Made by a program: the position numbers and the translations under genes. The notes under the pieces are model-generated. The model was not told where the DNA came from and did no database searches. It saw only the letters and a program-made list of their open reading frames with translations. A stretch of DNA of 55,633 nucleotides from a virus, in the IMG/VR virus record IMGVR_UViG_3300024239_000352, positions 1 to 55,633 of that record; one strand, written 5' to 3'. Every line of letters starts with the position of its first letter. Within the stretch, counting starts at the first letter, position 1. Below, one piece after another: positions 6,702-46,908 of the stretch.

Positions 6702-7934
6702 ATGATACATCATGATGATACGATGTCCATAGACAGGTTTTGTATTTCTGCAGGGGTTCTTGGTTCCGATCATCACATGACGATCGACTCTGATGGCATC
6801 AGCCTTAGCACCATGCCTCCTCACGACTGCTGGTTGCTCTCTGGACATTTTAGAAACGATGATCATCTTTGCTTAGACACATTACTGAAGCTCCATGGTG
6901 TCTGGTTCAATTCTCAACCTGATCAAAGATGGAAGAACATGATGGCATCCGTCGGCTGTGTTGAGGATGTTCCATGGTCAAAGGTTCTGCCGCCGAGTCA
7001 ATACAAGCTTCATGTAAAAAATCTAATAAAATCTGTCATTGCCAAATCAAAAGACATTTCTCAAGAATATTATAGAAACACGTGGCATCCATGCGGTGCT
7101 ATATTTCGCAGGTTGCGACCGGCCAAGATCGACACATCGACATACAAAAGCATCATTGACGCCGAAGGGCATGGAAACGGTGCATTGGAGACCTTCAAAC
7201 CATCGTCGGGAGGATACGCTTCTCAGGTGGTGTATGATCGTTTTGGAACGCGTACCGGAAGGTTGACCGTTGAGTCAGGTCCACAGATCTTGACGTTGAA
7301 AAAAGAGCATAAAAAGATCATAAAGTCTTATTACCAAGACGGACGCATAGTTTCACTCGATTTCGCAGCCCTCGAGGCCCGTGTCCTTCTTTTTGAAGCC
7401 GGTCATCAGCCTACCTCTAGCGACATCTACACACAGATTTCCAAAGATCTTTTTGAAGGCAGGGTTGAAAGATCCATCATCAAGGTGGCCGTGTTGAGTG
7501 AATTGTATGGGGCTTCTCGTGCTTCTTTGGATCACAGGTTGAACATGCCGTCAGCTGACCTTGACGTTTTCATAAAGTCGATCAAATCCTACTTCAAAAC
7601 GGCAATCCTGAAAGCACGCTTAAAAGAAGAGTTCGAAAAAAAAGGTAACATTACCAACAAGTTTGGTAGGCCTCTGTTCATCGATTCAAAAAATTCTGAT
7701 TATCTTCTTGTCAACACATACGCTCAAAGCACGGGTGCGGACATTTCTTTGCTGGGATTCTCTAAGATCACAGAGGCGTTAGGCTCTGACGGCATTCGTC
7801 CGCTTTTCGTTCTTCACGATGCCCTTATCCTTGATGTTCGACCTGATAGATTACGTGACGTGGAATCCATTACATCTATAAACATTTCAGGCTATGATCA
7901 TGGCTTTTCCATAAAGCCAGAGGTTATTGGATAA
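6702..7934 (+). CDS. Family A (Pol I-like) DNA polymerase, polymerase domain only
   Basis: A protein of 410 residues, enough for the Klenow polymerase core without a 3'-5' exonuclease domain. GTRTGRL is at 182-188 and motif A is SLDFAALEAR with catalytic Asp220. Motif B follows R-x3-K-x3-L-x3-YG with R257, K261, L265, Y269, so the position equivalent to E. coli Phe762 is Leu. Motif C is LHDALILDV: Asp373 is kept but the usual following Glu is Ala. Spacing of motifs B to C matches Pol I. A downstream in-frame ATG at 6723 is an alternative start. The window also carries a complete DnaE, so this may be a repair, priming-gap or specialised polymerase. Confidence 0.85.
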   Translation: MIHHDDTMSIDRFCISAGVLGSDHHMTIDSDGISLSTMPPHDCWLLSGHFRNDDHLCLDTLLKLHGVWFNSQPDQRWKNMMASVGCVEDVPWSKVLPPSQYKLHVKNLIKSVIAKSKDISQEYYRNTWHPCGAIFRRLRPAKIDTSTYKSIIDAEGHGNGALETFKPSSGGYASQVVYDRFGTRTGRLTVESGPQILTLKKEHKKIIKSYYQDGRIVSLDFAALEARVLLFEAGHQPTSSDIYTQISKDLFEGRVERSIIKVAVLSELYGASRASLDHRLNMPSADLDVFIKSIKSYFKTAILKARLKEEFEKKGNITNKFGRPLFIDSKNSDYLLVNTYAQSTGADISLLGFSKITEALGSDGIRPLFVLHDALILDVRPDRLRDVESITSINISGYDHGFSIKPEVIG

Positions 7935-31757: not shown

Positions 31758-32711
31758 ATGAAATCTATATTAGTGACAGGTGCTGCAGGTTTCATAGGCA
31801 GCTATCTTGTAGAGCATCACTTACAGATAGGCGATAAAGTATATGGAGTTGACAATTTTTGTTCTTCTAGCCCTGTCTCAAGGCATCACAGAAGCGCTGT
31901 TTCTAACAAGAATTATACGTTCAGCAGGCAGGACATAGCATCTTCTGCATTTATTCAAACGCATGCACATCTGTCTTTTGACCTGATCTATAATTTTGCT
32001 TGTCCTGCCTCACCGCCTATCTATCAAAATGTTCCAATTGAAACGATGATGACATGTGTCGTAGGAACAAACAACGCGCTGTCTTTGGCGTCAGCCAAAA
32101 CCGTCTTTGTTCAGGCGTCGACGTCGGAGGTCTACGGCGACCCAATGGTGCATCCTCAACCAGAAGCCTATAGGGGCTGTGTCAACTCATATGGGCCCAG
32201 ATCATGTTATGATGAAGGTAAACGTGCCGCTGAAGCCTTATGCTTTGATCACACACATAAACGAGGCATCGACGCGAGGCTAGTTAGAATATTCAATACG
32301 TACGGCCCTAGGATGGACCCTCACGACGGCAGAGTCATAACAAATATGATTGGCCAAACATTGGCGGGAAAGCCGATGACAATCTACGGAGATGGTTTCC
32401 AGTCACGTTCTTTTTGTTATGTCACTGACATGATTAGAGGCATTCTTGCGTTAGGCAATCTTTCAAGCAATCCGAACACACCTATAAATGTTGGTAACCC
32501 TAGCGAATTTACGATCATTGAATTGGCTGAAAAAATCAAATTAAGATTGGGAGGAAGCATAGAATTTCTTCCTCTTCCAAAAGACGATCCAAAACAACGA
32601 CAACCTGACATAACGCTTGCCAAAAAAATACTGGATTGGGAGCCAAGAATTGACCTAGATATTGGATTGGATCGAATGATCGAGTACATGAGAGCGACCA
32701 ATGACGCATGA
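31758..32711 (+). CDS. NAD-dependent nucleotide-sugar epimerase/decarboxylase (UXS-like)
   Basis: A protein of 317 residues of the extended short-chain dehydrogenase family: GAAGFIGS for NAD binding, STSEVYGDP, catalytic Tyr-x3-Lys in SCYDEGKRAAE, and RIFNTYGPRMDP. The pattern SSEVYGDP with YDEGKR and the VNSYGPRS segment is typical of UDP-glucuronate decarboxylase, which makes UDP-xylose. It could supply sugars for host-surface or phage glycan modification. It overlaps the next small gene by 11 nt. Confidence 0.85.
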   Translation: MKSILVTGAAGFIGSYLVEHHLQIGDKVYGVDNFCSSSPVSRHHRSAVSNKNYTFSRQDIASSAFIQTHAHLSFDLIYNFACPASPPIYQNVPIETMMTCVVGTNNALSLASAKTVFVQASTSEVYGDPMVHPQPEAYRGCVNSYGPRSCYDEGKRAAEALCFDHTHKRGIDARLVRIFNTYGPRMDPHDGRVITNMIGQTLAGKPMTIYGDGFQSRSFCYVTDMIRGILALGNLSSNPNTPINVGNPSEFTIIELAEKIKLRLGGSIEFLPLPKDDPKQRQPDITLAKKILDWEPRIDLDIGLDRMIEYMRATNDA

Positions 32712-33016: not shown

Positions 33017-33847
33017 ATGGATCTAAACGTTGTCCACAGGGGCACAGCCCTTGACTTGCTTTGTTCGATTCCTAATGAATCAATCGATCTTATCTACACC
33101 GATCCTCCGTTCGGCACAGGAAACACACAGACGATGGACCGGAAGAAGGCCGGGAAAACCGTCTCTAAAATTGAGTATAGCGATAAGTACGAGAATTACC
33201 TCGATTTTCTTGAGCCTCACCTGATTGAAATGCACAGGGTTCTGAAACCTACTGGTACCATGTACCTCCACATGGACTGGAGGTGGGTACACTATGCTAA
33301 GGTGATGTGTGATGGAATCTTTGGAATGGAAAACTTCCTCAACGAGGTTGTTTGGTCCTACAACTTTGGTGGACGAGGAAAGGATCGTTGGCCTCAGAAG
33401 CATGACACCATCCTTGTCTACACCAAGGAGATGGGCAAGCACACTTTCAATTGGAAAGATATAGACAGGATTCCATATGCCGCACCAGAGCTACAGTATG
33501 TTGGTAGATCGAGGGAAGAGGCAGAGAAAAGAATAGCTGAAGGTCAGGTTCCAACAGACGTGTGGAGCATGAGCATCGTAGGAACAGCGTCCAAAGAGAG
33601 AATAGGATACCCCAACCAGAAACCAATTAAATTAATGAAGCGTGCAATTGTTGCATCGTCAAATGAAGGAGACATTGTTCTTGATCCTTTTGGAGGGTCG
33701 GGTTCAACAGCGGCCGCGGCTATGGAAGCAAATAGAAAATTCATTACAGGTGATTCAAGCCCAGACGCAATCCAAACAATGCGCAACAGGTTTACAGGGC
33801 TTGACGTAAAATTTATAGAAAGTAAATTAGGAGAAAACAATGGCTAA
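33017..33847 (+). CDS. DNA methyltransferase, beta class (DPPF)
   Basis: A protein of 276 residues. Catalytic TDPPFG (28-33) and AdoMet-binding DPFGGSGST near 220 give the beta-class order. NQKPIKLMKRAI precedes the second motif as usual. No adjacent restriction gene. It overlaps the actin-like gene by 8 nt. The second of two solitary methyltransferases in the window; the two differ in catalytic motif (DPPF here, DPPY at 22447) and so may mark different sites. Confidence 0.9.
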   Translation: MDLNVVHRGTALDLLCSIPNESIDLIYTDPPFGTGNTQTMDRKKAGKTVSKIEYSDKYENYLDFLEPHLIEMHRVLKPTGTMYLHMDWRWVHYAKVMCDGIFGMENFLNEVVWSYNFGGRGKDRWPQKHDTILVYTKEMGKHTFNWKDIDRIPYAAPELQYVGRSREEAEKRIAEGQVPTDVWSMSIVGTASKERIGYPNQKPIKLMKRAIVASSNEGDIVLDPFGGSGSTAAAAMEANRKFITGDSSPDAIQTMRNRFTGLDVKFIESKLGENNG

Positions 33848-34844
33848 AGGTTTAGACGTCGGTACATCATTCATCGTTCTTGCATCTGAGGGTTCAAAGG
33901 GCAAGGTGGTCTACAAGGACTTCCGGGACGCATTCTACGTCCTCAAGCCAACAACACCGATCGCCGCCAAGATGATCGAAAAGGGTTTGGCTGGCAAGAC
34001 ATTTGTCAAGGACACTGATGGTTCATTCATCCTCCTCGGCTCCGACGCAATCGAAAAGGCCGTGGAGAGAAACGACTCGGCGAAGCGTCCAATGTACCGT
34101 GGTGTCGTATCATCCAAGGAAAAGGATGCCCGTCGCATTTTGACATACATCCTCAAGGAGGTCGCAGCCTCACCCTCCGAGCCCGGTGAAAAGCTAGTCT
34201 TCTGCGTCCCTGCTCAACCAATCGATCAAGAAGACGACGATTTCGACGTTGGTTACCATGAGGACGTCATCGTCAAGCTCCTCGCCGAGGTCGGTTACGA
34301 TGCTCGTGCCATCAACGAGGCCGAGGCGCTTTGCTACTCTGAACTCGACAAGGATGACTACACAGGTGTCTGCCTCTCATGGGGCGCAGGTATGGTCAAC
34401 GTCTGCGTCATGCTCAACGGTGAACCTGTGGTCAAGTTCTCCACCACAAAGTCCGGTGATTGGGTCGATCGTATGTCCGCAGTCGCGACAGGTGAGACAG
34501 ATTCAATTGTCCAGGCCGAAAAAGAGTCAGGAGAGTTCACCGTCGGTCAACCCAACGATAACCAGGTCCTCGCCGCTGTGGCAGCCTATTATGAACGTCT
34601 TATCGACTACACTACGAAGCAACTTGCAGCGGCGATGGACGGCCACAAGTCACTTCCAAAATTCAAGGGTGATCTTCCAGTCGTGGTTGCAGGTGGTACA
34701 TCCAAGGCCAAGGGATTCGTCGACATGTTTGCTTCAAAGTTGAAGGACAATGGCTTCCCACTTCCTGTCAAAGAGGTACGCCACGCAGCAGATCCCCTAC
34801 ATGCCGTTGCTCGTGGATGTTTAATCGCAGCCCAGGTGATGTAA
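33840..34844 (+). CDS. Actin/ParM-like ATPase
   Basis: A protein of 334 residues with actin-superfamily signatures: phosphate-1 GLDVGTSFIVLA (Asp6), phosphate-2 LSWGAGMVNVCVM after NEAEALCYSE, and adenosine motif VVAGGTSKAKGF. ParM, MreB and phage actins such as AlpC share these. It could build filaments that position or segregate phage DNA; an Hsp70-like role is less likely at this length. Strong GGAG Shine-Dalgarno. Very C-rich third codon positions suggest high expression. Confidence 0.8.
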   Translation: MAKGLDVGTSFIVLASEGSKGKVVYKDFRDAFYVLKPTTPIAAKMIEKGLAGKTFVKDTDGSFILLGSDAIEKAVERNDSAKRPMYRGVVSSKEKDARRILTYILKEVAASPSEPGEKLVFCVPAQPIDQEDDDFDVGYHEDVIVKLLAEVGYDARAINEAEALCYSELDKDDYTGVCLSWGAGMVNVCVMLNGEPVVKFSTTKSGDWVDRMSAVATGETDSIVQAEKESGEFTVGQPNDNQVLAAVAAYYERLIDYTTKQLAAAMDGHKSLPKFKGDLPVVVAGGTSKAKGFVDMFASKLKDNGFPLPVKEVRHAADPLHAVARGCLIAAQVM

Positions 34845-37187: not shown

Positions 37188-37251
37188 TTTGGACGGTCTT
37201 GACTAGTTTGAATATGTATTTACATGAAAAGAAAATTCAAGACCGTCCAAA
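37188..37251 (+). promoter_or_regulatory. 15-bp inverted repeat enclosing an endonuclease start codon
   Basis: TTTGGACGGTCTTGA (37188-37202) and TCAAGACCGTCCAAA (37237-37251) are perfectly complementary. The 34-nt loop contains TATGTATTTAC and the ATG at 37224. In read-through mRNA the start would be held in the loop. In T4, intron-encoded endonucleases use such hairpins to block translation of early transcripts. Confidence 0.75.
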
Positions 37252-38051
37252 TCACTTGTGAACAATGTGGGAAAATATCTTTAAAACAAAAAGGCCGCCG
37301 ATTTTGTAATACGTCTTGCGCGAATAAATGGTTGCATGCCCATGGCAAACTGAGCGCAAAAGCAATCATTGGAATGAATATGTCGTTGGAATCGCTGATT
37401 CAGCGATATGGAGATCTGTTAGGTCTTCAAAAATACGAAGAATTCATTAAAATAATGAGTGCTGCCACATCTGGGCAGAAAAATCCAATGTATGGTAAAA
37501 ATTACCAAACACATGGATTAAAAAAAGAGGGTGAAAAAAGAAGAGGAAAAACTGAAGTTGAACACTACGGTTTAGAGAAAGCGAAAGAAATTTCAAAGAA
37601 AAAGTCAGAAGCTTCATCTGGAAAAAACAACTCCATGTATGGTAAGCCCTCACCGAAATTATCGGGTAAAGGAACCAAAGGCTACTATAAAGGACATTAC
37701 TTTAGAAGTTTATTAGAGCTTTTGTGTATGAAACACTTAGAAGAAGATGGAATAGATCTAAATGACATCGATTATGAAAATTTTGTGATAAAATATGTTT
37801 CTTACGATGGTCGTCAAAGGACATATAGACCTGATTTTTTTATTCCAAGCAGAAATCAATTAGTTGAGGTAAAACCTTTTAGATTGATTTCTACCCCCTT
37901 GAATACACTTAAGTTCGAAGCTGCTCTTTCTTTTTGTAAAGAAAGAAACATTGAGTTTAAAGTTTTGACAGAAAAGTCTTTTACTTTATCAAAAGAAGAC
38001 GCAGTAAAAGATCAGAATGTCGTTCTTTTGGAGGCAAAAAATGAGAAATAA
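37224..38051 (+). CDS. Homing endonuclease-like: zinc knuckle, NUMOD3 repeats, PD-(D/E)XK nuclease
   Basis: A protein of 275 residues. An N-terminal zinc knuckle (CEQC, CNTSC at about 13-33) is followed by two NUMOD3-like units (SGQKNPMYGKN, SGKNNSMYGKP). A C-terminal nuclease domain has SLLELL, YRPDFFIP and LVEVKPF, i.e. E, PD and E-x-K of the PD-(D/E)XK fold. The gene is clearly A/T-richer than its neighbours, suggesting transfer. It ends with GGAGG that serves the next gene, overlapping its start. A paralogue of the same layout is at 40527. Confidence 0.75.
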   Translation: MKRKFKTVQITCEQCGKISLKQKGRRFCNTSCANKWLHAHGKLSAKAIIGMNMSLESLIQRYGDLLGLQKYEEFIKIMSAATSGQKNPMYGKNYQTHGLKKEGEKRRGKTEVEHYGLEKAKEISKKKSEASSGKNNSMYGKPSPKLSGKGTKGYYKGHYFRSLLELLCMKHLEEDGIDLNDIDYENFVIKYVSYDGRQRTYRPDFFIPSRNQLVEVKPFRLISTPLNTLKFEAALSFCKERNIEFKVLTEKSFTLSKEDAVKDQNVVLLEAKNEK

Positions 38052-38587
38052 TGAGGTATTGGCCCGTCAGAAGATTATTATCTTCGACGGGCCAGATTGA
38101 AGGGTGTGGCAAAACACACATGGCAAAGGAGCTTGCCAAAATTACTAATATCGCTTACTTTAAAAATATTGACGAACACAAGTACTTTCTCAGCGATCCA
38201 AACTACTTCATCAACGCCATCAGGTATGTCGACACGTACTTCACATCTTACTTGGAGGCGTCAGGTGCGTCGATCATTCTCGATCGTGCCTGGCCTTCTG
38301 AGTGGATCTACAGCAAGGCCGTCGGTCGTTCAACAGATCTTGAGGTTCTAAAGGATCTCGATAGGCGGCATGCTCGCTTAGGAACAAAGCTGATTATTCC
38401 ATGGCGATCCGACTATACAAAGGTGAAGGATGACTACGATGTCGTCAACCAAAAAATCAATTTAATTCATGACTTGTATCACGAATTTGCAAATTCATGG
38501 ACACAATGTGATGTCTTATTGTTGAACGTAGACAACGAAGATTTGAACGAAGAAATGCAACAAATTACAGGATTTATCAACACATGA
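38041..38587 (+). CDS. Deoxynucleotide kinase-like gene, frame broken at the P-loop
   Basis: ATG 38041 follows a perfect GGAGG by 7 nt and encodes MRNNEVLARQKIIIFDGPD, then TGA at 38098-38100. The rest of the P-loop, GCGKTHMAKELAK, continues in the +1 frame from 38102 to 38587. The 4 bases TGAA (38098-38101) separate FDGPD from GCGKT, which together would give the canonical GPDGCGKT. The frame open to 38587 can start at ATG 38051, but then lacks the first strand and Gly of the P-loop. The body (ILDRAWPSEWIYSKAVG) resembles dTMP/dNMP kinases. Either a pseudogene, a recoded gene or a sequence error. Confidence 0.7.
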
Positions 38588-39144
38588 ATAGAATTACAAA
38601 AGACATTGGACCGTATGTAAAGGTCACATTTAAGCGCCAATTACCCTACTCAATTCCTGGTCAATGTGTCAAGCTCGACGGAAAGTGGTTCGCAATTTAC
38701 GAAGTCAATCCAGGTGATTTTAGTATCTTGGTCAACAAGAATTCACATTATGCTGAAAATGACCCTCAGGAAATTTCAGAACCCCTGGGAGAAGGTTTTA
38801 CAGCCTCGCTGTGCAAACGTGCCATTGTCGTAGGAGGAGGCACAGGAATTGGCGCCGTCATGCCGGTCATCAAGAACAGAAATCGGCATGGTCTTTCAAC
38901 TGATGTGATTTTTTATACCCGAGGCGACATTTCTCCCATTAGGTTGGATCAGGCTACCATTGGTATGTGCAGGAATGTAATTTTCTGGGACACGACAAAA
39001 CAAGGTCGTCCTTCGACGCCGCTGGAGCCTCTTGTCGATAAGCAGGCTGAATCGACCATCTTCGTCGCAGGCCCAAAGTCACTTGTTACAGCGACTGAAG
39101 AGGCAGCTCGCAACTACAATTTTGATTGTTACACTAATTTTTGA
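38584..39144 (+). CDS. Flavin/ferredoxin reductase-like NAD(P)-binding protein
   Basis: A protein of 186 residues, starting in an ATGA overlap. Residues about 12-65 resemble a shortened FAD-binding barrel (RQLPYSIPGQCVKL). From about 78 an NAD(P)-binding domain follows: AIVVGGGTGIGAVMPVI, DVIFYTRGD, STIFVAGPKSLV. The order is that of FNR-like and PyrK-like reductases. It may supply electrons or reduced flavin to the ThyX-type enzyme upstream, though this is inference. No iron-sulfur Cys cluster is seen. Confidence 0.65.
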   Translation: MNRITKDIGPYVKVTFKRQLPYSIPGQCVKLDGKWFAIYEVNPGDFSILVNKNSHYAENDPQEISEPLGEGFTASLCKRAIVVGGGTGIGAVMPVIKNRNRHGLSTDVIFYTRGDISPIRLDQATIGMCRNVIFWDTTKQGRPSTPLEPLVDKQAESTIFVAGPKSLVTATEEAARNYNFDCYTNF

Positions 39145-39163
39145 AAAGTACATAAGTACTTTT
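39144..39163. promoter_or_regulatory. Inverted repeat, candidate operator before the RHH gene
   Basis: AAAAGTAC (39144-39151), ATAA, GTACTTTT (39156-39163): a perfect 8-bp dyad 20 nt before the start of a ribbon-helix-helix gene. Such proteins commonly bind palindromes in their own promoter. Confidence 0.45.
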
Positions 39164-39182: not shown

Positions 39183-39353
39183 ATGACCATGAAACAATCG
39201 AAGATCTCGTTAAATGAAGAGACTCATCGAATGCTGAAGGTGTACTGTGCGAAGCACGGATTATTGATGAGTCAATTCGTTTCGGAGATCATTCGAGAGA
39301 GGATTGGCTATGTGGACGACAAAAACGGTTCAGGAGATGCCGACAACCCCTAA
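39183..39353 (+). CDS. Ribbon-helix-helix DNA-binding protein
   Basis: A protein of 56 residues. SKISLNEETHRMLKVYC gives the N-terminal strand and first helix, GLLMSQFVSEIIRERI the second helix, as in Arc/MetJ/CopG-type repressors. A short polar tail follows. It overlaps the next gene by 44 nt. It probably regulates transcription locally, perhaps via the dyad at 39144. Confidence 0.75.
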   Translation: MTMKQSKISLNEETHRMLKVYCAKHGLLMSQFVSEIIRERIGYVDDKNGSGDADNP

Positions 39354-40446
39354 ACTGATGGGGATCTATCAAATCACTAATATAGTCAACGGGAAAAGGT
39401 ATATTGGAAAAAGCAAGAATATACGTAGGCGGTGGATGGAGCACATTCGCAATAATCGAATAGGAAATTCAGTTAATAAACACTTCCAATGTGCTTGGAC
39501 CATGTATGGTGAAGATAAATTTTTATTTGAAGTTCTTGAACAAATCCAAGATGAAGCTCAGCTTGGATTGAGAGAAAAGATTCTTGTAGAAGAGAAAATG
39601 CCTGAGTATAATGTCTCTATTGTAGACGAAGGTCAATGGACTTTAACAAACGAAAAAATTGAGAAATGTCGACAAATTAGACTTAATGCTGATCCTTCTT
39701 GGAACAAGAAGATAGGTAATTCTCTTCGTGGAAAAAAGAAAAGTGACGAACATGTAAGTAAGATGCGAAAAAGTCTTACTGGAAGGAAAGCAACCCCTGA
39801 ACAGATCGAGAAAATTCGTAAGGCTTCAACAGGTCGACTTGTTTCTGAGGATGCAAAAAAGAAAATTGCAGACAAGGCAAAAGGAAATCAAAGATGGAAG
39901 CTTCGAACGCCACAGTGGCGGGAGAACATGATTGCAGGCGTCAAGAAAAGATGGGAAAGGTACAGAAAAATGAAAAATGAAAATACTTTTGGTAAAAAAC
40001 TTGCATGCTATCTCGCTAGCGGTTGGTTTTCGCCCGATCAGGACAAGCAGCTGACAAAGCTCGAAAATGTATTTGACAGTCGAGCTGAGTGGATCTCTTT
40101 GGCTTCGCCACGAAGGATCTTCGTCTGCCCACCAGACGCATCCCTGGAGGTCCAAGACAGCGTCTTCAACGGCAATGTTGAGCACATCAAGAAGGCAGAT
40201 TTCTGTCTCGTCAACACGACATATCGTGATATCGGTACGATTTGGGAGGCTGGCGCTGCATATGCCTATGGCACAAAGATCGTTTACTTCTGCGAAAATC
40301 TTCCACCTGGTGCAAAGTTCAATTTGATGCTTAGTAGAAGCGGCATCAAGGTTTGCACTACATTCGAACAGCTCGAGGACTACCTTGAAAGGTGCAAGGC
40401 TGCCGGTGAGATGTTGTACGAACCCTACGACAAGGAAATTGAGTGA
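39310..40446 (+). CDS. In-frame fusion: GIY-YIG homing endonuclease and nucleoside deoxyribosyltransferase
   Basis: A protein of 378 residues. Residues 17-110 are a GIY-YIG nuclease (MGIYQI at 17-22, RYIGKS at 30-35, RRRWMEH, then LREKILVEEKMPEYN). NUMOD-like repeats (SLRGKKKSDEH, SLTGRKATPEQ, STGRLVSED) fill about 130-200. From about 231 a nucleoside 2-deoxyribosyltransferase starts: CYLASGWFSPDQ, IFVCPPDA, KADFCLVN, DIGTIWEAGAAYAYG. An internal ATG at 39970 with GGGAAAGG upstream could start the transferase alone. The first 16 residues may be the original transferase N-terminus. The nuclease part is A/T-rich, the transferase part is not. Confidence 0.8.
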   Translation: MWTTKTVQEMPTTPKLMGIYQITNIVNGKRYIGKSKNIRRRWMEHIRNNRIGNSVNKHFQCAWTMYGEDKFLFEVLEQIQDEAQLGLREKILVEEKMPEYNVSIVDEGQWTLTNEKIEKCRQIRLNADPSWNKKIGNSLRGKKKSDEHVSKMRKSLTGRKATPEQIEKIRKASTGRLVSEDAKKKIADKAKGNQRWKLRTPQWRENMIAGVKKRWERYRKMKNENTFGKKLACYLASGWFSPDQDKQLTKLENVFDSRAEWISLASPRRIFVCPPDASLEVQDSVFNGNVEHIKKADFCLVNTTYRDIGTIWEAGAAYAYGTKIVYFCENLPPGAKFNLMLSRSGIKVCTTFEQLEDYLERCKAAGEMLYEPYDKEIE

Positions 40447-40472: not shown

Positions 40473-40502
40473 AAGGCCATTGTGAAAATCGATGGCCTTT
40501 TT
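40473..40502 (+). terminator. Rho-independent terminator before the second endonuclease
   Basis: AAGGCCAT (40473-40480) and ATGGCCTT (40492-40499) form an 8-bp stem with an 11-nt loop, followed by TTTTT. It ends the operon of the deoxyribosyltransferase and isolates the endonuclease gene, whose ATG is 25 nt further on. Confidence 0.85.
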
Positions 40503-40526: not shown

Positions 40527-41447
40527 ATGGACACAATAGATACACCAAAAATTGTATGCGAGATTTGCAATACTGCATTTACACACAAGAACACACAGAT
40601 AAGAACGTGCAGTAAAAAATGCAGTTATGAACTGAGAAATAAAACAAGACATCATGTAAAGCATGAACCTGTTCAAAAGAAATGTATTGAATGTCTTGAA
40701 ACCTTCCAAGACTATAGTAAAAAGAAGTTAGTGATCAAATGCCAAAATTGTGTTTATGCAAACATGGCATCAAAAAGAAAACAGAATGGAAGTTATCATC
40801 AAACAGACGAAAGAAAATTACAGCAAAGCCTGCTGATGAAACGTCTTCATCAGGAAAGAGATTTTATCTCTGATGAAGGCATACGTCAATTGTCAGAGAA
40901 AGCTAAAAGCAGGTGGCAGTCAGATGATTATAGGTCGAGTGTCAAGAAACGCAGCCTAGAGAAATATGGCGTAGAGCATTGGACGAAAACTGAAGAGGCC
41001 AGGAAACAACTCAGCGAAAGATCAAAAAAATATAGGGCCTCAGATGAAACGAAGCAGAAGATGAGGGTTAGTGCTGCTAAACGCCTACGTGAAGGTCGTA
41101 ATTTGCACCCATTCCACGGTAAGGGTGGGTACAGACAAGACATTGATCTTTACGTAAGAAGCAGATGGGAGGCTAACTTTGCGAGATATTTGCTTTTGAC
41201 GAATCAAAAATTTGAGTATGAAAAAGTGAGTTTTTCGCTTCGAGATGGAAGAACATATACACCTGATTTCAAAGTTGAAAATATGCTGTATGAAATCAAA
41301 GGATGGTGGACACAAGCTGCAAAAGAAAAATTTGAAATCTTTAAGGAAGATTATCCCGAAGCCGTCGTGCAAATAATAGACGAGGCAAGGTACAATCAGA
41401 TCCAGGATCAGTATGCTGCTTTGATTCCAAACTGGGAATATAAATGA
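40527..41447 (+). CDS. Homing endonuclease-like: zinc knuckles plus PD-(D/E)XK nuclease
   Basis: A protein of 306 residues. Two Cys clusters (CEIC with CSKKC, CIEC with CQNC) occupy about 10-75. A basic helical middle with KAKSRWQSDDYRSSVKKRSLEKYGVEHWTKTEE-type repeats follows. The C-terminal nuclease has RSRWEANFARYLL, YTPDFKV and YEIKGWW (E, PD, E-x-K). It is laid out like 37224 and shares its start context (TATGTATTT then CATG). A/T-rich. ATG 40527 follows the terminator; the upstream in-frame start would read through it. It overlaps the dnaE start. Confidence 0.75.
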   Translation: MDTIDTPKIVCEICNTAFTHKNTQIRTCSKKCSYELRNKTRHHVKHEPVQKKCIECLETFQDYSKKKLVIKCQNCVYANMASKRKQNGSYHQTDERKLQQSLLMKRLHQERDFISDEGIRQLSEKAKSRWQSDDYRSSVKKRSLEKYGVEHWTKTEEARKQLSERSKKYRASDETKQKMRVSAAKRLREGRNLHPFHGKGGYRQDIDLYVRSRWEANFARYLLLTNQKFEYEKVSFSLRDGRTYTPDFKVENMLYEIKGWWTQAAKEKFEIFKEDYPEAVVQIIDEARYNQIQDQYAALIPNWEYK

Positions 41448-44400
41448 CCAACATTCTTAGGCCACCTGCGCAGTTCATCAGCCTTCACTCGCACTCACAT
41501 TTCAGTACTTATGATGGGTTAGGGCAACCATCAGATCACATTGATTTTTGTGTCCAAAATGGATTGTCAGGTTGGTCTCTTACCGACCATGGCAACGGCA
41601 ACGGATTGGCCCATGCTCACGCTCACGCCAAGAAGATCATCAAGTCGAAGGGGCACAAGTTTAGGCAACTCTACGGTGTTGAGTTCTACTTCGTTCCTGA
41701 CTTGGCCGATTGGAAGATCAGGTACGACCTCTCCAAGAAAGAGGACTCGAAGAAGGGCGACGATGAAGAAGAAGCAGGCCTGGTCGTTGAGGACGCTGAT
41801 GAGACACGTTCCGACGGAGATCGATTCGTCGATGTCAACAAGCGTTACCACCTTGTGGTTGTCGCAAAGAACAGTGTAGGTCTTTCCAACCTGTTCACTC
41901 TCGTCAAGAAGAGCTACGTCGACGGTTTCTACAAGTTTCCTCGAATCGACTTCAAACTTCTCAAAGAACACGGCGAAGGCCTTGTTGTCTCGACTGCATG
42001 CGTCGGTGGCTATCCCAGCGGCGTCATCTACAGCGAGTTTGGCGACAAGAAGTTCGCCGAGCTTGATCCTTCGCTGGTCGACGACGAAGTCGTGAGGAAC
42101 AGGATCAGAAACAAGCTGGAGAACGTCGTCGATCGCTTCGTCGATTGTGTTGGACACGAAAACTTCTTCCTGGAGCTTCAGTTCAACAAGCTGCCTGCCC
42201 AGGACCTGACCAACAGGATGATGATCGAGACGGCGGCATCAACGGGTTGTAAGCTTCTTTCCACCGCAGACTCACACTATCCAGAACCTGCCCTGTGGGA
42301 GGCCAGGGAGATCTATCGGCAGCTGCAACCTGGTCGCATGAAGATTGGTGTAGAGCCTAAGCCTCTTCCTAAGTTTGAGGAGCTGAAGTGTGAGCTGTAT
42401 CCGAAGAACGCTCAGCAGATGTGGGACGAATATCTAGGCCGTCGCGAAGCCTATGATTGGTACAAAGGAACAGAAGACGCCGTCCGCACCTCCATGGAGA
42501 ATGGCCACGATATCGCCTGGAACCTTTGTGAGGAGATCTGGTTCGACACTTCGGCCAAGCTTCCTACCTTCGGAACACCTGAAAAATCAGGTTTCAAACA
42601 ACTCGTTGACCTCGTCAAGGAAGGTTTGGTCGCTGAGGGTCTCGACAAGAAGCCTGACTACGTTGCCCGTGCCAAGATGGAGTTGGACGACATCAAGTAC
42701 CTGAAGTCTGAGGACTACTTCTTGACCCTGCAGAAGGTGTTCAAGCTGGCCGAAAATCGAACGTTGCCAGGTTCAGGTCGTGGCTCAGGCGCCGGTTCGC
42801 TTGTCAACTACCTGCTAGGCATTACCCACGTCGATCCCCTCAAGTATGACCTGCTGTGGGAAAGGTTCATGGGGCGGCACAGGGTCGGATATCCCGATAT
42901 CGACACAGACGTCGGTGACCGTGACAAGCTGATCGAAGCAGCCAGAGAAATCTTCGGCAATGACGCTGTCGTCCCGGTTTCCAACTTCAATACCTTGAAG
43001 CTGAAGTCGCTCGTCAAGGACGTCTCCAAGTTTTACGGAGTTCCTTTCGATGAGGTCAACGCTGTCACAGGCCCACTCGAGCGTGAAGTGGAGCAGAAGT
43101 CGCGTGATCCCAACATGGAAAAGTCCATGTTCGTCCTGAAGCACGAGGACTGCATGGAGCACTCCGAGAACTATAGGAACTTCATGGAAAAGTATCCTCA
43201 GGTCGAAGAGAAGATCAGGACGTTATTCATGATGAACCGCTCAGTCGGCCGCCATGCCGGTGGTGTCCTGATCTGTCCTCAGCTCGAGAAGCACATGCCT
43301 CTCATCACTGTTCGAGGTGAGCTTCAGACACCATGGACCGAAGGTGTCAACATTCGAAATCTTGAGGAGAACGGATTCCTCAAGTTCGACTTCCTCGGCA
43401 TCAAGCAGATGAAGATGGTGGAGGATTGCATCGCCCGAATCCTGAAGCGCGAGCTGGGTCGTGAGCCGATCTTCGAAGAGATCAAGAAGTTCTACGATGA
43501 GAAGCTCAACTGTCGATACGTCGAACCGAACGACGACAAGGTCCTGAACCACGTCTATCGCAGCAATCGATGGCCAGGCATCTTCCAGTTCACATCTGAA
43601 GGCGCCCGGAAGTTCTGTCACGAGGTCCAGCCGACATCGATCGAGGACATCGGTGTCGTCACGGCAATCTATCGTCCAGGTCCACTCAAGGCCAACGTTC
43701 ACAAGAAATACGTCGAAGCAAAGAAGGACGCATCCAAGGCACAGTACGATCACCCGACCATCAAGGATGTCCTTGGCACGACCTACGGGTTCATTGCCTT
43801 CCAGGAGCAATTCATGATGTTGGCACAGAAGCTCGCCGGATTCTCACCAGGTGAATCCGACAAGATGCGCAAGACTCTTGTCAAGAAGGACCTGACGTCC
43901 CTTGGCAAGAAGTCCGAAGAGAAAGAGGCATTGGAAAAGAAGTTCATCGATGGCTGCATCACAGTCAGCGGCATGGAAAGGTTCAAGGCGAAGGAGCTGT
44001 TCGACAAGATCGCGTTCTTCTCGTTGTATGGTTTCAACAAGTCCCACGCAATTGCCTACGCAATCGATTCGTACTACGGCGCCTGGTTGATGACCTACTA
44101 TGAGACCGATTGGTTGGCAACATGCCTTCAGTCTGAAAATGCCAACGTTGAAGGCCTGGCATGGATGATCTCCGAGATCAAGCAACTTGGCTACAAGACG
44201 TCGACGCCTGACATCAACCACTCTACGAACGAATGGACGTGGTCCGAGAAGCTTCACGCTTTCGTCCCGCCCCTGTCTTCGCTGAAGGGAGTCGGTGAGT
44301 CAGCCGTCGAGGAGATCATTGCAAATCGTCCATACAAGTCGATCGAGGACATGTTGTGGACGCCGGATGGCGTGTGGCGCCACTCCAAGTTCAACAAGAA

Positions 44401-44965
44401 GGCCATCGATGCCCTGCTGAAGATGGAGGCCTTTGAGTCATTGAGGGATCCTGAAACGTGTATCTGGGGCAACTACAGACAGCTCCACTTTGCAATCGTT
44501 GAAAACATGGATACCATCAAAAAATCCACAAAAAAAGATCCGCTGTCTGGTCAGAAGAAATTCTTTGAATTATTGGAGTCGTCACGAGAGATGCCCGATT
44601 GGACCCGTATTGAGAAGATTGAGAATAAGATTTCTTGCTCCGGCACGATGGACATTAGCATGTGTGTTGAGTATGATATACTGCAACGTTTGCAGAACAA
44701 GGGAATTAGGTCTCTTGACGAGATTGATGGAACAGATATTTACTGGTTTGTCGTAAAGAACTCCATTCCAAAGACGACAAAGAATGGAAAGGCATACCTG
44801 CTGTTGGAGGCATTGAGTCCTTCAGGCAAGGTTTCAAAGATCTTCTGTTGGAAATGGGATGGAGAACGGCAGATTGTGCCTTACACGCTGTGTTTGGCTG
44901 AGGTTTCTAAGTCTGACTTTGGAATGTCCACTACATTTTGGAAATTGAATGAGGTTGATCAATGA
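41444..44965 (+). CDS. dnaE: DNA polymerase III alpha subunit (DnaE) with PHP domain
   Basis: A protein of 1173 residues. The PHP domain (1 to about 300) keeps its metal residues: HSHSHFS, LTDHG, GVEFY, YHLVVV, TACVGG and ADSHY, so proofreading activity is possible. It carries an acidic insert at about 97-125. The polymerase core has PGSGRGSGAGSLVNY and YPDIDTDVGD with Asp485/Asp487, then KFDFLGIKQMKMV and IYRPGPL. The C-terminal about 150 residues, from about nt 44500, switch to less C-rich codons. It is the likely replicative polymerase, which is unusual beside T4-type SSB and helicase. ATGA overlap with the upstream endonuclease. Confidence 0.95.
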   Translation: MTNILRPPAQFISLHSHSHFSTYDGLGQPSDHIDFCVQNGLSGWSLTDHGNGNGLAHAHAHAKKIIKSKGHKFRQLYGVEFYFVPDLADWKIRYDLSKKEDSKKGDDEEEAGLVVEDADETRSDGDRFVDVNKRYHLVVVAKNSVGLSNLFTLVKKSYVDGFYKFPRIDFKLLKEHGEGLVVSTACVGGYPSGVIYSEFGDKKFAELDPSLVDDEVVRNRIRNKLENVVDRFVDCVGHENFFLELQFNKLPAQDLTNRMMIETAASTGCKLLSTADSHYPEPALWEAREIYRQLQPGRMKIGVEPKPLPKFEELKCELYPKNAQQMWDEYLGRREAYDWYKGTEDAVRTSMENGHDIAWNLCEEIWFDTSAKLPTFGTPEKSGFKQLVDLVKEGLVAEGLDKKPDYVARAKMELDDIKYLKSEDYFLTLQKVFKLAENRTLPGSGRGSGAGSLVNYLLGITHVDPLKYDLLWERFMGRHRVGYPDIDTDVGDRDKLIEAAREIFGNDAVVPVSNFNTLKLKSLVKDVSKFYGVPFDEVNAVTGPLEREVEQKSRDPNMEKSMFVLKHEDCMEHSENYRNFMEKYPQVEEKIRTLFMMNRSVGRHAGGVLICPQLEKHMPLITVRGELQTPWTEGVNIRNLEENGFLKFDFLGIKQMKMVEDCIARILKRELGREPIFEEIKKFYDEKLNCRYVEPNDDKVLNHVYRSNRWPGIFQFTSEGARKFCHEVQPTSIEDIGVVTAIYRPGPLKANVHKKYVEAKKDASKAQYDHPTIKDVLGTTYGFIAFQEQFMMLAQKLAGFSPGESDKMRKTLVKKDLTSLGKKSEEKEALEKKFIDGCITVSGMERFKAKELFDKIAFFSLYGFNKSHAIAYAIDSYYGAWLMTYYETDWLATCLQSENANVEGLAWMISEIKQLGYKTSTPDINHSTNEWTWSEKLHAFVPPLSSLKGVGESAVEEIIANRPYKSIEDMLWTPDGVWRHSKFNKKAIDALLKMEAFESLRDPETCIWGNYRQLHFAIVENMDTIKKSTKKDPLSGQKKFFELLESSREMPDWTRIEKIENKISCSGTMDISMCVEYDILQRLQNKGIRSLDEIDGTDIYWFVVKNSIPKTTKNGKAYLLLEALSPSGKVSKIFCWKWDGERQIVPYTLCLAEVSKSDFGMSTTFWKLNEVDQ

Positions 44966-45754: not shown

Positions 45755-45949
45755 ATGCCGACGTATGAGTATGAGTGCAAGTCATGTAGTCATCAACTTG
45801 AGGCGGAGCAATCGATCAACGATGACCCTCTTGTGACCTGCCCACAATGCCATGCTGATTTCTTGAGAAGATTGATCAGCAGATCTTCGTTTGTGTTGAA
45901 AGGTTCAGGCTGGGCGGCAGACAATTATTCTTCAACGGGTGCAAAATGA
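45755..45949 (+). CDS. FmdB-type zinc-ribbon protein
   Basis: A protein of 64 residues beginning MPTYEYECKSCSHQLE, with a second pair CPQC, and ending FVLKGSGWAADNY, all hallmarks of FmdB zinc-ribbon proteins. Some members regulate transcription; most are uncharacterised. ATG 45755 is set by the family N-terminus. It overlaps the epimerase gene by 4 nt (ATGA). Confidence 0.85.
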   Translation: MPTYEYECKSCSHQLEAEQSINDDPLVTCPQCHADFLRRLISRSSFVLKGSGWAADNYSSTGAK

Positions 45950-46908
45950 GAATACTAGTGACAGGCGGTGCTGGCTTCATTGGAAGCAACTTTGTCAAGA
46001 AGTGTGTCGAAATTAATCATTGCGTCGATGTAGTCGACAATCTTTCGAATGGACATGTCAACTTTGTGCCTAGTTGTTTGAGGCAAGACAACTTTTTTAT
46101 TAGTTCATTTGATTCCGATGGTGTTTTGCAAAGAATTAGAGAAAAAAATTATGATGTTGTTGTTCATCTAGCCGCTGTTCCTCGTGTCAGCTATTCTGTT
46201 GAATATCCATTTGAAACCCATGAAACGAACGTGACTGCGACATTACGTTTATTAGAAGCATGTCGAGGTAACATCAAGAGGTTTGTATTCGCTTCATCTT
46301 CGTCAGTGTACGGCGGCGCCGATGTTTTGCCAACACCTGTTACAGCAAAGAAGGATCCAAAATCACCTTATGCCTTACAGAAGTCTATTGTAGAAGATTA
46401 TTTGAAACTATACAACGATCTTTATGGATTAGATTCTGTTTCTTTACGTTTTTTTAATGTTTTTGGTCCAAATCAGTTAGGCGATTCACCTTATGCGACA
46501 GCAGTGTCTTCATGGCTAAATGCAATTATGCGAGGACAATCAATGAGGTCTGATGGAGATGGTTCACAATCACGTGACATGTGTTACGTTGACAATGTTG
46601 TCGACGCGTGTTTACGTTCATGTGTAGCCAACTCCAGCCTAGGGGCCCTCGCCCTCAACATTGCGTGCGGTGACAGAACGACGAACAAAGAAATCTTGCA
46701 ATATTTATTGAATAAATTTCCTCATGCAAAATATCATGATGCTCCGTGGAGAGCTGGTGATGTCATGCATACCCAGGCAGATATTTCTTTGACAGAAAAC
46801 GTTTTAGGATACAAGCCTCTTGTAAGATTCTGGGAGGGGTTAGACAAGACGATACGATGGCATGAAGAAAATTGGGAAGAAATTTTATCATTATCTGAAA
46901 ACACATAA
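45946..46908 (+). CDS. NAD-dependent sugar epimerase (UDP-glucose 4-epimerase-like)
   Basis: A protein of 320 residues. GGAGFIGSN for NAD binding, HLAAVPRV, SSSSVYGG, Tyr-x3-Lys in SPYALQKSIVE, RFFNVFGP and DGSQSRDMCYVDNV mark an extended SDR epimerase. It would interconvert nucleotide sugars. Together with the decarboxylase-like enzyme at 31758 it suggests that the phage changes glycans or makes a sugar donor. No glycosyltransferase was recognised in the window. Confidence 0.85.
   Translation: MRILVTGGAGFIGSNFVKKCVEINHCVDVVDNLSNGHVNFVPSCLRQDNFFISSFDSDGVLQRIREKNYDVVVHLAAVPRVSYSVEYPFETHETNVTATLRLLEACRGNIKRFVFASSSSVYGGADVLPTPVTAKKDPKSPYALQKSIVEDYLKLYNDLYGLDSVSLRFFNVFGPNQLGDSPYATAVSSWLNAIMRGQSMRSDGDGSQSRDMCYVDNVVDACLRSCVANSSLGALALNIACGDRTTNKEILQYLLNKFPHAKYHDAPWRAGDVMHTQADISLTENVLGYKPLVRFWEGLDKTIRWHEENWEEILSLSENT

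What the first reader, a model, noticed from the sequence alone, without database searches (positions are those of the whole stretch)
39310..40446. GIY-YIG endonuclease fused in frame to a nucleoside deoxyribosyltransferase
The frame runs without a stop from nuclease into transferase. The 16 residues before the nuclease end in PTTPKL and the transferase resumes at ACYLASGW, so removal of the nuclease could restore PKL-ACYLASGW; AAACT is repeated at both joints. This looks like an in-frame insertion into the 5' end of the transferase gene. There are no intein splice residues. An internal ATG with GGGAAAGG (39970) could rescue the transferase on its own. Insertions of this kind that keep both partners usable are rarely described.
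Basis: partly seen in the sequence, partly recalled or inferred. Interest (0 to 1): 0.7.

Follow-up and report, generated by a model that had tools for sequence, protein, structure and literature searches.

The report
Repressor-linked phage nuclease fused to transferase
In this phage a DNA-cutting selfish gene, paired with a small repressor-like gene, sits directly in front of a nucleotide-recycling enzyme gene and runs into it without a stop codon; the same repressor-plus-nuclease pairing turns up in many other phages with unrelated nucleases, which I did not find described.

Summary
The open frame is real. One stop-free frame (39310-40446) encodes a GIY-YIG homing nuclease followed by a type-II-like nucleoside deoxyribosyltransferase (NDT). 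A second phage (L003) has the same fusion with synonymous sites saturated, and a third contig (L002) holds its 3' part, so it is not an assembly error.

Unfused relatives show that M-N-N-FG(R/K)KL before ACYLASGWF is the transferase's own N-terminus, so the native start ATG 39970 survives. The nuclease lies upstream of the gene, not inside it. 'PTTPKL' is the nuclease's N-terminus, read out of frame across the end of a ribbon-helix-helix (RHH) gene. AAACT is a chance 5-mer absent from L003.

The unit is a two-gene cassette: tandem GTAC boxes, an SvtR-like RHH gene, then a homing endonuclease (HEG) starting inside the RHH tail, directly 5' of NDT. Six phages carry it. Four have a DUF7487-type nuclease whose stop overlaps the NDT start. 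The GIY-YIG version lacks a stop and is fused. RHH and NDT similarities disagree, so the unit moves or recombines. The same RHH type also precedes TnsA-like, Vsr-like, DUF723, HNH and GIY-YIG nucleases elsewhere. Dual translation and autorepression are inferred.

The parts
38584..39144 (+). reductase-like gene, upstream flank; its homologue abuts NDT directly in L005 and L006
   Evidence: no Pfam or PHROG hit, named by eye
39146..39161 (+). tandem GTAC boxes 8 bp apart (AAGTACATAAGTACTT), candidate operator of the RHH protein
   Evidence: only exact site in the window; equivalent boxes 8-10 bp apart at the same place in L003, L010, L108, L008, L004
39189..39353 (+). RHH (SvtR-like) regulator gene; alternative start 39183
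   Evidence: family profile A5 hits SvtR/56B structure 2kel E 6.7e-7; conserved in six phages
39295..39303 (+). GAGAGAGGA Shine-Dalgarno for the nuclease start, inside the RHH gene
   Evidence: duplex energy -8.0 kcal/mol at ATG 39310 against 0.1 at ATG 39358; the same sequence precedes the HEG start in L010 and L108
39310..39969 (+). GIY-YIG homing endonuclease part of the fused frame (GIY-YIG domain from 39358, then NUMOD3-like repeats by eye)
   Evidence: PF01541 E 4e-11, phrog_314 homing endonuclease E 9e-27; matches I-TevI catalytic domain 1mk0 E 3e-9
39953..39960 (+). GGGAAAGG, possible Shine-Dalgarno for internal initiation
   Evidence: -6.2 kcal/mol; 12% of in-frame internal ATGs in the window do as well
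39970..40446 (+). nucleoside 2-deoxyribosyltransferase with its native start codon retained
   Evidence: PF05014 E 6.5e-12; solved homologue 6evs E 2e-11; aligned starts of unfused relatives
40473..40502 (+). terminator-like hairpin AAGGCCA...TGGCCTT + T run after NDT
   Evidence: read directly; loop too long for the terminator scan

Best explanation
This is a free-standing homing endonuclease cassette of two genes, an RHH regulator and a GIY-YIG nuclease, placed directly 5' of the NDT gene. The nuclease starts at ATG 39310 inside the RHH tail, from a Shine-Dalgarno within the RHH coding sequence. It has no stop codon, so a ribosome that translates it must continue through the native NDT start into a nuclease-NDT fusion (shown by sequence). 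Internal initiation at the retained ATG 39970 probably also makes NDT alone, so the phage keeps its enzyme whatever the nuclease does (inferred). The RHH protein most likely represses the unit through the tandem 8-bp boxes upstream (inferred). The nuclease spreads the cassette by cutting alleles that lack it near the 5' end of NDT (inferred from family, mosaicism and empty sites).
For: Same RHH-HEG-NDT order in six phages (window, L003, L010, L108, L008, L004) and empty sites in L005 and L006. HEG exchanged at a fixed place: GIY-YIG in two, DUF7487-type in four, with the HEG start at the same point of the RHH tail (GAGATCATTCGAGAGAGGATTGGC identical in four phages). Fusion frame kept in L003 with dN 0.23 at saturated dS, an in-frame 11-codon linker indel, and 3+5 out-of-frame stops in the same stretch. 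Identity discordance: window against L108 is RHH 85% but NDT 62%; L008 against L108 is RHH 62% but NDT 94%; L008 against L004 is RHH 88% but NDT 68%. The RHH scan seeded only from NDT-site RHHs found six new sites, five with a nuclease or nuclease-like gene next. The best upstream repeat has an 8-bp period in the window, L003, L010, L108, L118, L121, L122, L130. SvtR is a repressor (own knowledge).
Against: No expression, cleavage or binding data. The internal Shine-Dalgarno is not exceptional (12% of internal ATGs in the window, 25% in L003 equal it). An open linker could be luck: P(open) 0.24 and 0.10. The nuclease lacks the C-terminal NUMOD1-like segment of some relatives and may be weak. 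Boxes in L008 and L004 are 10 bp apart, and most single-locus repeat tests are not significant. Reading-frame constraint in the overlap with RHH is only P = 0.04.
Confidence: 0.68

Rival explanations
1. The fusion is incidental: the GIY-YIG gene lost its stop (and perhaps its C-terminal DNA-binding end) by decay, and only NDT made from its own start matters.
For: HEGs decay often; C-terminal NUMOD1-like part absent compared with L112 and L130; linker poorly conserved, pN 0.41; internal start retained in both fusions.
Against: Nuclease under purifying selection, dN/dS about 0.09 with saturated dS; GIY, YIG, R, E and N motif residues kept in both; frame kept open across an 11-codon indel.
Confidence: 0.2
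2. A selected bifunctional enzyme: tethering NDT to the nuclease serves a purpose, for example oligomerisation of the nuclease by NDT, or making loss of the nuclease cost the phage its NDT.
For: Fusion conserved in two divergent phages; NDT is a multimer in characterised relatives, so it could bring nuclease copies together (own knowledge).
Against: Unfused HEG-NDT and HEG-free NDT occur in close relatives; internal NDT start retained; the structure model gives no confident interface (mean pLDDT 60).
Confidence: 0.08
3. One reading: in-frame insertion inside the 5' end of the transferase, borders PKL/ACYLASGW.
For: Open frame and AAACT at both points.
Against: Transferase N-terminus is complete to the right of the junction; PTTPKL overlaps an RHH gene; AAACT absent in L003; relatives with a different HEG abut the intact NDT start.
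Confidence: 0.02
4. Intein or group I intron carrying the nuclease.
For: GIY-YIG nucleases often live in introns (own knowledge).
Against: No Rfam intron in 36-46 kb; frame open throughout; no intein residues at the borders.
Confidence: 0.01

Closest known systems
Free-standing phage homing endonucleases (T4 seg and mob genes, e.g. mobE next to nrdA)
   Same: intergenic HEG beside a nucleotide-metabolism gene, variable between related phages, start overlapping the upstream ORF; T4 overlaps are 11-24 bp for segC, segF, mobA and mobC (PMC2988022)
   Different: here the overlapped upstream gene is a dedicated RHH gene (44 bp overlap), and the nuclease is fused downstream to the neighbouring enzyme
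I-TevI (phage T4 GIY-YIG intron endonuclease)
   Same: GIY-YIG catalytic domain; I-TevI represses its own transcription (PMC2988022)
   Different: no intron; the presumed repressor is a separate RHH gene
SvtR/56B of Sulfolobus rod-shaped virus 1 (PDB 2kel)
   Same: RHH fold family by profile, E 6.7e-7
   Different: paired here with nucleases in phage-like contigs
Phage nucleoside deoxyribosyltransferase (phrog_7995, PF05014)
   Same: whole domain and start
   Different: N-terminal nuclease fusion
T4 mobA / gene 60 bypass cassette and Aeh1 nrdA-mobE (own knowledge)
   Same: HEG entry changes how a neighbouring gene is translated while function can be kept
   Different: here fusion with a retained internal start, no bypass and no split gene

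Membership tests
GIY-YIG endonuclease | GIY...YIG motifs with conserved R, E and N | tested here: met
GIY-YIG endonuclease | DNA cleavage | not testable with these tools
   no assay
Free-standing homing endonuclease gene | presence/absence polymorphism at a defined site among relatives | tested here: met
   occupied: window, L003, L004, L008, L010, L108; empty: L005, L006
Free-standing homing endonuclease gene | separate ORF with its own stop codon | tested here: not met
   no stop before the NDT end in window and L003; met for the DUF7487-type versions. So it is filed as a fused derivative of such a gene, not as a typical member
Free-standing homing endonuclease gene | cleaves the cognate empty site and is copied | not testable with these tools
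   identity discordance only
Nucleoside 2-deoxyribosyltransferase (PF05014) | family profile and aligned catalytic D/E region (RDIGTIWEAG) | tested here: met
   catalytic roles from own knowledge
RHH repressor (SvtR-like) | ribbon-helix-helix profile match | tested here: met
   2kel E 6.7e-7 with the family profile; single-sequence Pfam hit below cut-off
RHH repressor (SvtR-like) | repeated operator at its own promoter | tested here: inconclusive
   8-bp tandem boxes upstream in many, 10 bp in two
Group I intron | intron RNA structure | tested here: not met
   no hit
Intein | splicing blocks at borders | tested here: not met
   no Pfam intein domain; no Cys/Ser...His-Asn at the joints by eye

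The most novel reading that the evidence does not exclude
RHH-nuclease is a general two-gene selfish unit of phages: one small SvtR-like repressor type with an 8-bp tandem operator is combined with unrelated homing nucleases (GIY-YIG, DUF7487/HNH, DUF723, TnsA-like, Vsr-like), the nuclease being swapped at a fixed junction in the RHH tail, and in this lineage the nuclease is welded to the neighbouring phage enzyme so that both products come from one frame.
Probability: 0.5. Interest if true: 0.68.

Novelty: new variant of a known kind. Interest (0 to 1): 0.55.

Why it matters
How free-standing homing endonucleases are kept from harming their phage is largely open; the T4 review names their transcriptional and translational regulation as an area of ignorance (PMC2988022). 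A dedicated, exchangeable repressor gene shared by unrelated nuclease families would be a general answer and is directly testable by binding and reporter assays. The fusion gives a natural case in which a mobile nuclease gains a useful partner while the partner's own start is kept.

Tried and rejected
Nucleotide search of 37-42 kb against phage records: no match. Nuclease-only scans of IMG/VR found only L003 and L002 as fusions. Start at ATG 39358 rejected as the main start: no Shine-Dalgarno (0.1 kcal/mol) against -8.0 at 39310. Genome-contig scan for the RHH gave one partial hit. Structure prediction of the fusion: mean pLDDT 60, nuclease poorly modelled, so no fold search was made. RHH neighbours that are not nucleases are listed in the report. 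One identity matrix used wrong coordinates for L010 NDT and L008 HEG and was redone. Literature searches for RHH with homing endonucleases, and for HEG-NDT, found nothing on point in the open-access library; subscription papers were not covered.

Full report
Observation. The window is a virus record. The frame from ATG 39310 to 40446 is open. It contains a GIY-YIG domain (PF01541, E 4e-11; phrog_314 homing endonuclease, E 9e-27) and a nucleoside deoxyribosyltransferase (PF05014, E 5e-11; phrog_7995). The profile of the nuclease matches the catalytic domain of I-TevI (1mk0, E 3e-9), and the transferase matches the solved enzyme 6evs (E 2e-11). In an alignment with other GIY-YIG homing nucleases the GIY, YIG, arginine, glutamate and asparagine positions are kept.

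The fusion is not an artefact. L003, a different contig of 116 kb, has the same gene order and the same fused frame: nuclease 69% and NDT 92% identical in protein, synonymous differences saturated (pS about 0.73-0.75), dN 0.23 for the nuclease and 0.07 for NDT, and an 11-codon insertion in the linker that keeps the frame. L002 (24 kb, 99% identical NDT) starts inside the nuclease tail and is also in frame. By chance alone the linkers would be open with probability 0.24 and 0.10, so the conserved opening is suggestive, not proof of selection.

The junction. Unfused close relatives begin the transferase with MTKNENNFGRKLACYLASGWF (L004) and MSANNFGRKLHVYLASGWF (L005); the fused ones have MKNENTFGKKLACYLASGWF (window) and MKNSNGFGRKLACYLASGWF (L003). 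The native start codon therefore survives inside the fused frame (ATG 39970 in the window), and nothing of the transferase lies to the left of the nuclease. The 16 residues ending in PTTPKL lie over the 3' end of a small gene, 39189-39353, read in another frame. AAACT at 39352 and 39997 is a five-base match, absent at the joints of L003. The insertion-into-the-gene model falls.

The small gene. It encodes a ribbon-helix-helix protein. A profile of eight relatives hits SvtR/56B of a Sulfolobus virus (2kel) with E 6.7e-7. A strong Shine-Dalgarno, GAGAGAGGA, within this gene precedes ATG 39310 (-8.0 kcal/mol; 0.1 for ATG 39358). In the 44-base overlap six of nine differences between window and L003 fall on third positions of the nuclease frame (P = 0.04). 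In L010 and L108 a different nuclease starts at the same point of the RHH tail after the same 24 bases.

A cassette in six phages. RHH, then HEG, then NDT occurs in the window and L003 (GIY-YIG) and in L010, L108, L008 and L004 (DUF7487-type, HNH-like by eye: LDHKFSVAEGF). In these four the HEG stop overlaps the NDT start codon or lies a few codons past it (ATGA in L010 and L108). L005 and L006 have no cassette: the reductase stop is followed by about nine bases and the NDT start. L007 lacks it too. The upstream gene differs (reductase or ThyX), so the fixed side is the 5' end of NDT. All six have GTAC boxes spaced by 8 bp (10 bp in L008 and L004) just upstream of RHH.

Mobility or recombination. 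Identities do not agree between genes: window and L108 share 85% in RHH but 62% in NDT; L008 and L108 62% in RHH but 94% in NDT; L008 and L004 88% in RHH but 68% in NDT and 37% in HEG. RHH, HEG and NDT have been reassorted, as expected at a homing site.

The RHH-nuclease pair elsewhere. A scan seeded only with NDT-site RHH sequences found six further loci. Five have a nuclease or nuclease-like gene next: L118 and L120 (DUF723, phrog_681), L121 (nuclease-like by eye only, no profile hit), L122 (TnsA-like) and L123 (HNH); L119 does not. Even if 20% of phage genes were nucleases, five of six has probability 0.0016; the true background rate was not measured. A wider scan added L129 (HNH), L130 (GIY-YIG with NUMOD3), L133 (DUF7487), L135 (Vsr/DUF559-like) and L137, where RHH and GIY-YIG are in one ORF; L132, L134, L136, L140 and L144 have other neighbours. 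That second scan is partly biased because its seeds were chosen near nucleases. The best upstream repeat has an 8-bp period in L118, L121, L122 and L130 as well, strongest in L130 and L121; RHH genes without a nuclease neighbour mostly lack it, but most single tests are not significant. The 8-bp period recalls MetJ operators (own knowledge).

Mechanism. Shown: order, overlap, absence of a stop, retained start, conservation. Inferred: a ribosome that starts at 39310 makes a 378-residue fusion; another start at 39970 makes the 158-residue NDT; the RHH protein represses the unit; the nuclease promotes its copying into cassette-free NDT loci. The internal Shine-Dalgarno (-6.2 kcal/mol) is matched by 12% of internal ATGs in the window, so internal initiation is plausible but untested. 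Fusion at the N-terminus should spare NDT activity because in characterised type II enzymes the C-terminus completes a neighbour's active site (own knowledge). The AlphaFold model is weak (mean pLDDT 60) but gives a helix running from the nuclease tail to just before the first NDT strand.

Comparison. T4 free-standing HEGs also overlap upstream genes, by 11-24 bp, and I-TevI represses itself (PMC2988022). HEGs at recombination boundaries and shuffling of their domains are described in PMC10448857, where the word 'ribbon' does not occur. I found no open-access paper on an RHH gene paired with homing nucleases or on a nuclease-NDT fusion.

Verdict. New variant of a known kind.

Noticed in passing
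window 38051-38150: Kinase gene just after a TnsA-like HEG looks frameshifted at its P-loop: one frame reads QKIIIFDG, another continues IEGCGKTHMAKEL, apparently through a 4-base CCAG insertion that completes a long hairpin (TGGCCCGTC A GAAGAT TATT ATCTTC GACGGGCCA). Looks like a templated (quasi-palindrome) mutation or unusual decoding.
   Followed up: partly
window 37224-38051 and 40527-41447: Two more free-standing HEG-like genes (TnsA-like with NUMOD3; endonuclease of phrog_945 type) flank the same nucleotide-metabolism cluster; both are absent at those places in L003.
   Followed up: partly
L003 5492-9900: DnaE-like polymerase gene of L003 is interrupted by intein-like sequences (CLTGDAELVT...VVHNC and a second after FNKS, by eye); the window's polymerase is uninterrupted there.
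   Followed up: no
L137 1510-1953: One ORF joins a GIY-YIG domain to a ribbon-helix-helix domain, a direct fusion of the two partners that are separate genes in the window.
   Followed up: partly
L130 1503-2466: RHH gene followed by an overlapping GIY-YIG/NUMOD3 HEG, with more than three tandem copies of an 8-bp unit (CTACTTTT) upstream of RHH.
   Followed up: partly
window 33840-34844: Actin-like protein matching the archaeal Volactin family (E 1e-64).
   Followed up: no
window 6702-7934 and 41444-44965: Two DNA polymerase genes in one phage contig: a family A polymerase and a bacterial DnaE-like polymerase III alpha.
   Followed up: no
window 31758-32711 and 45946-46908: Two nucleotide-sugar epimerase genes of the same PHROG (phrog_540).
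   Followed up: no
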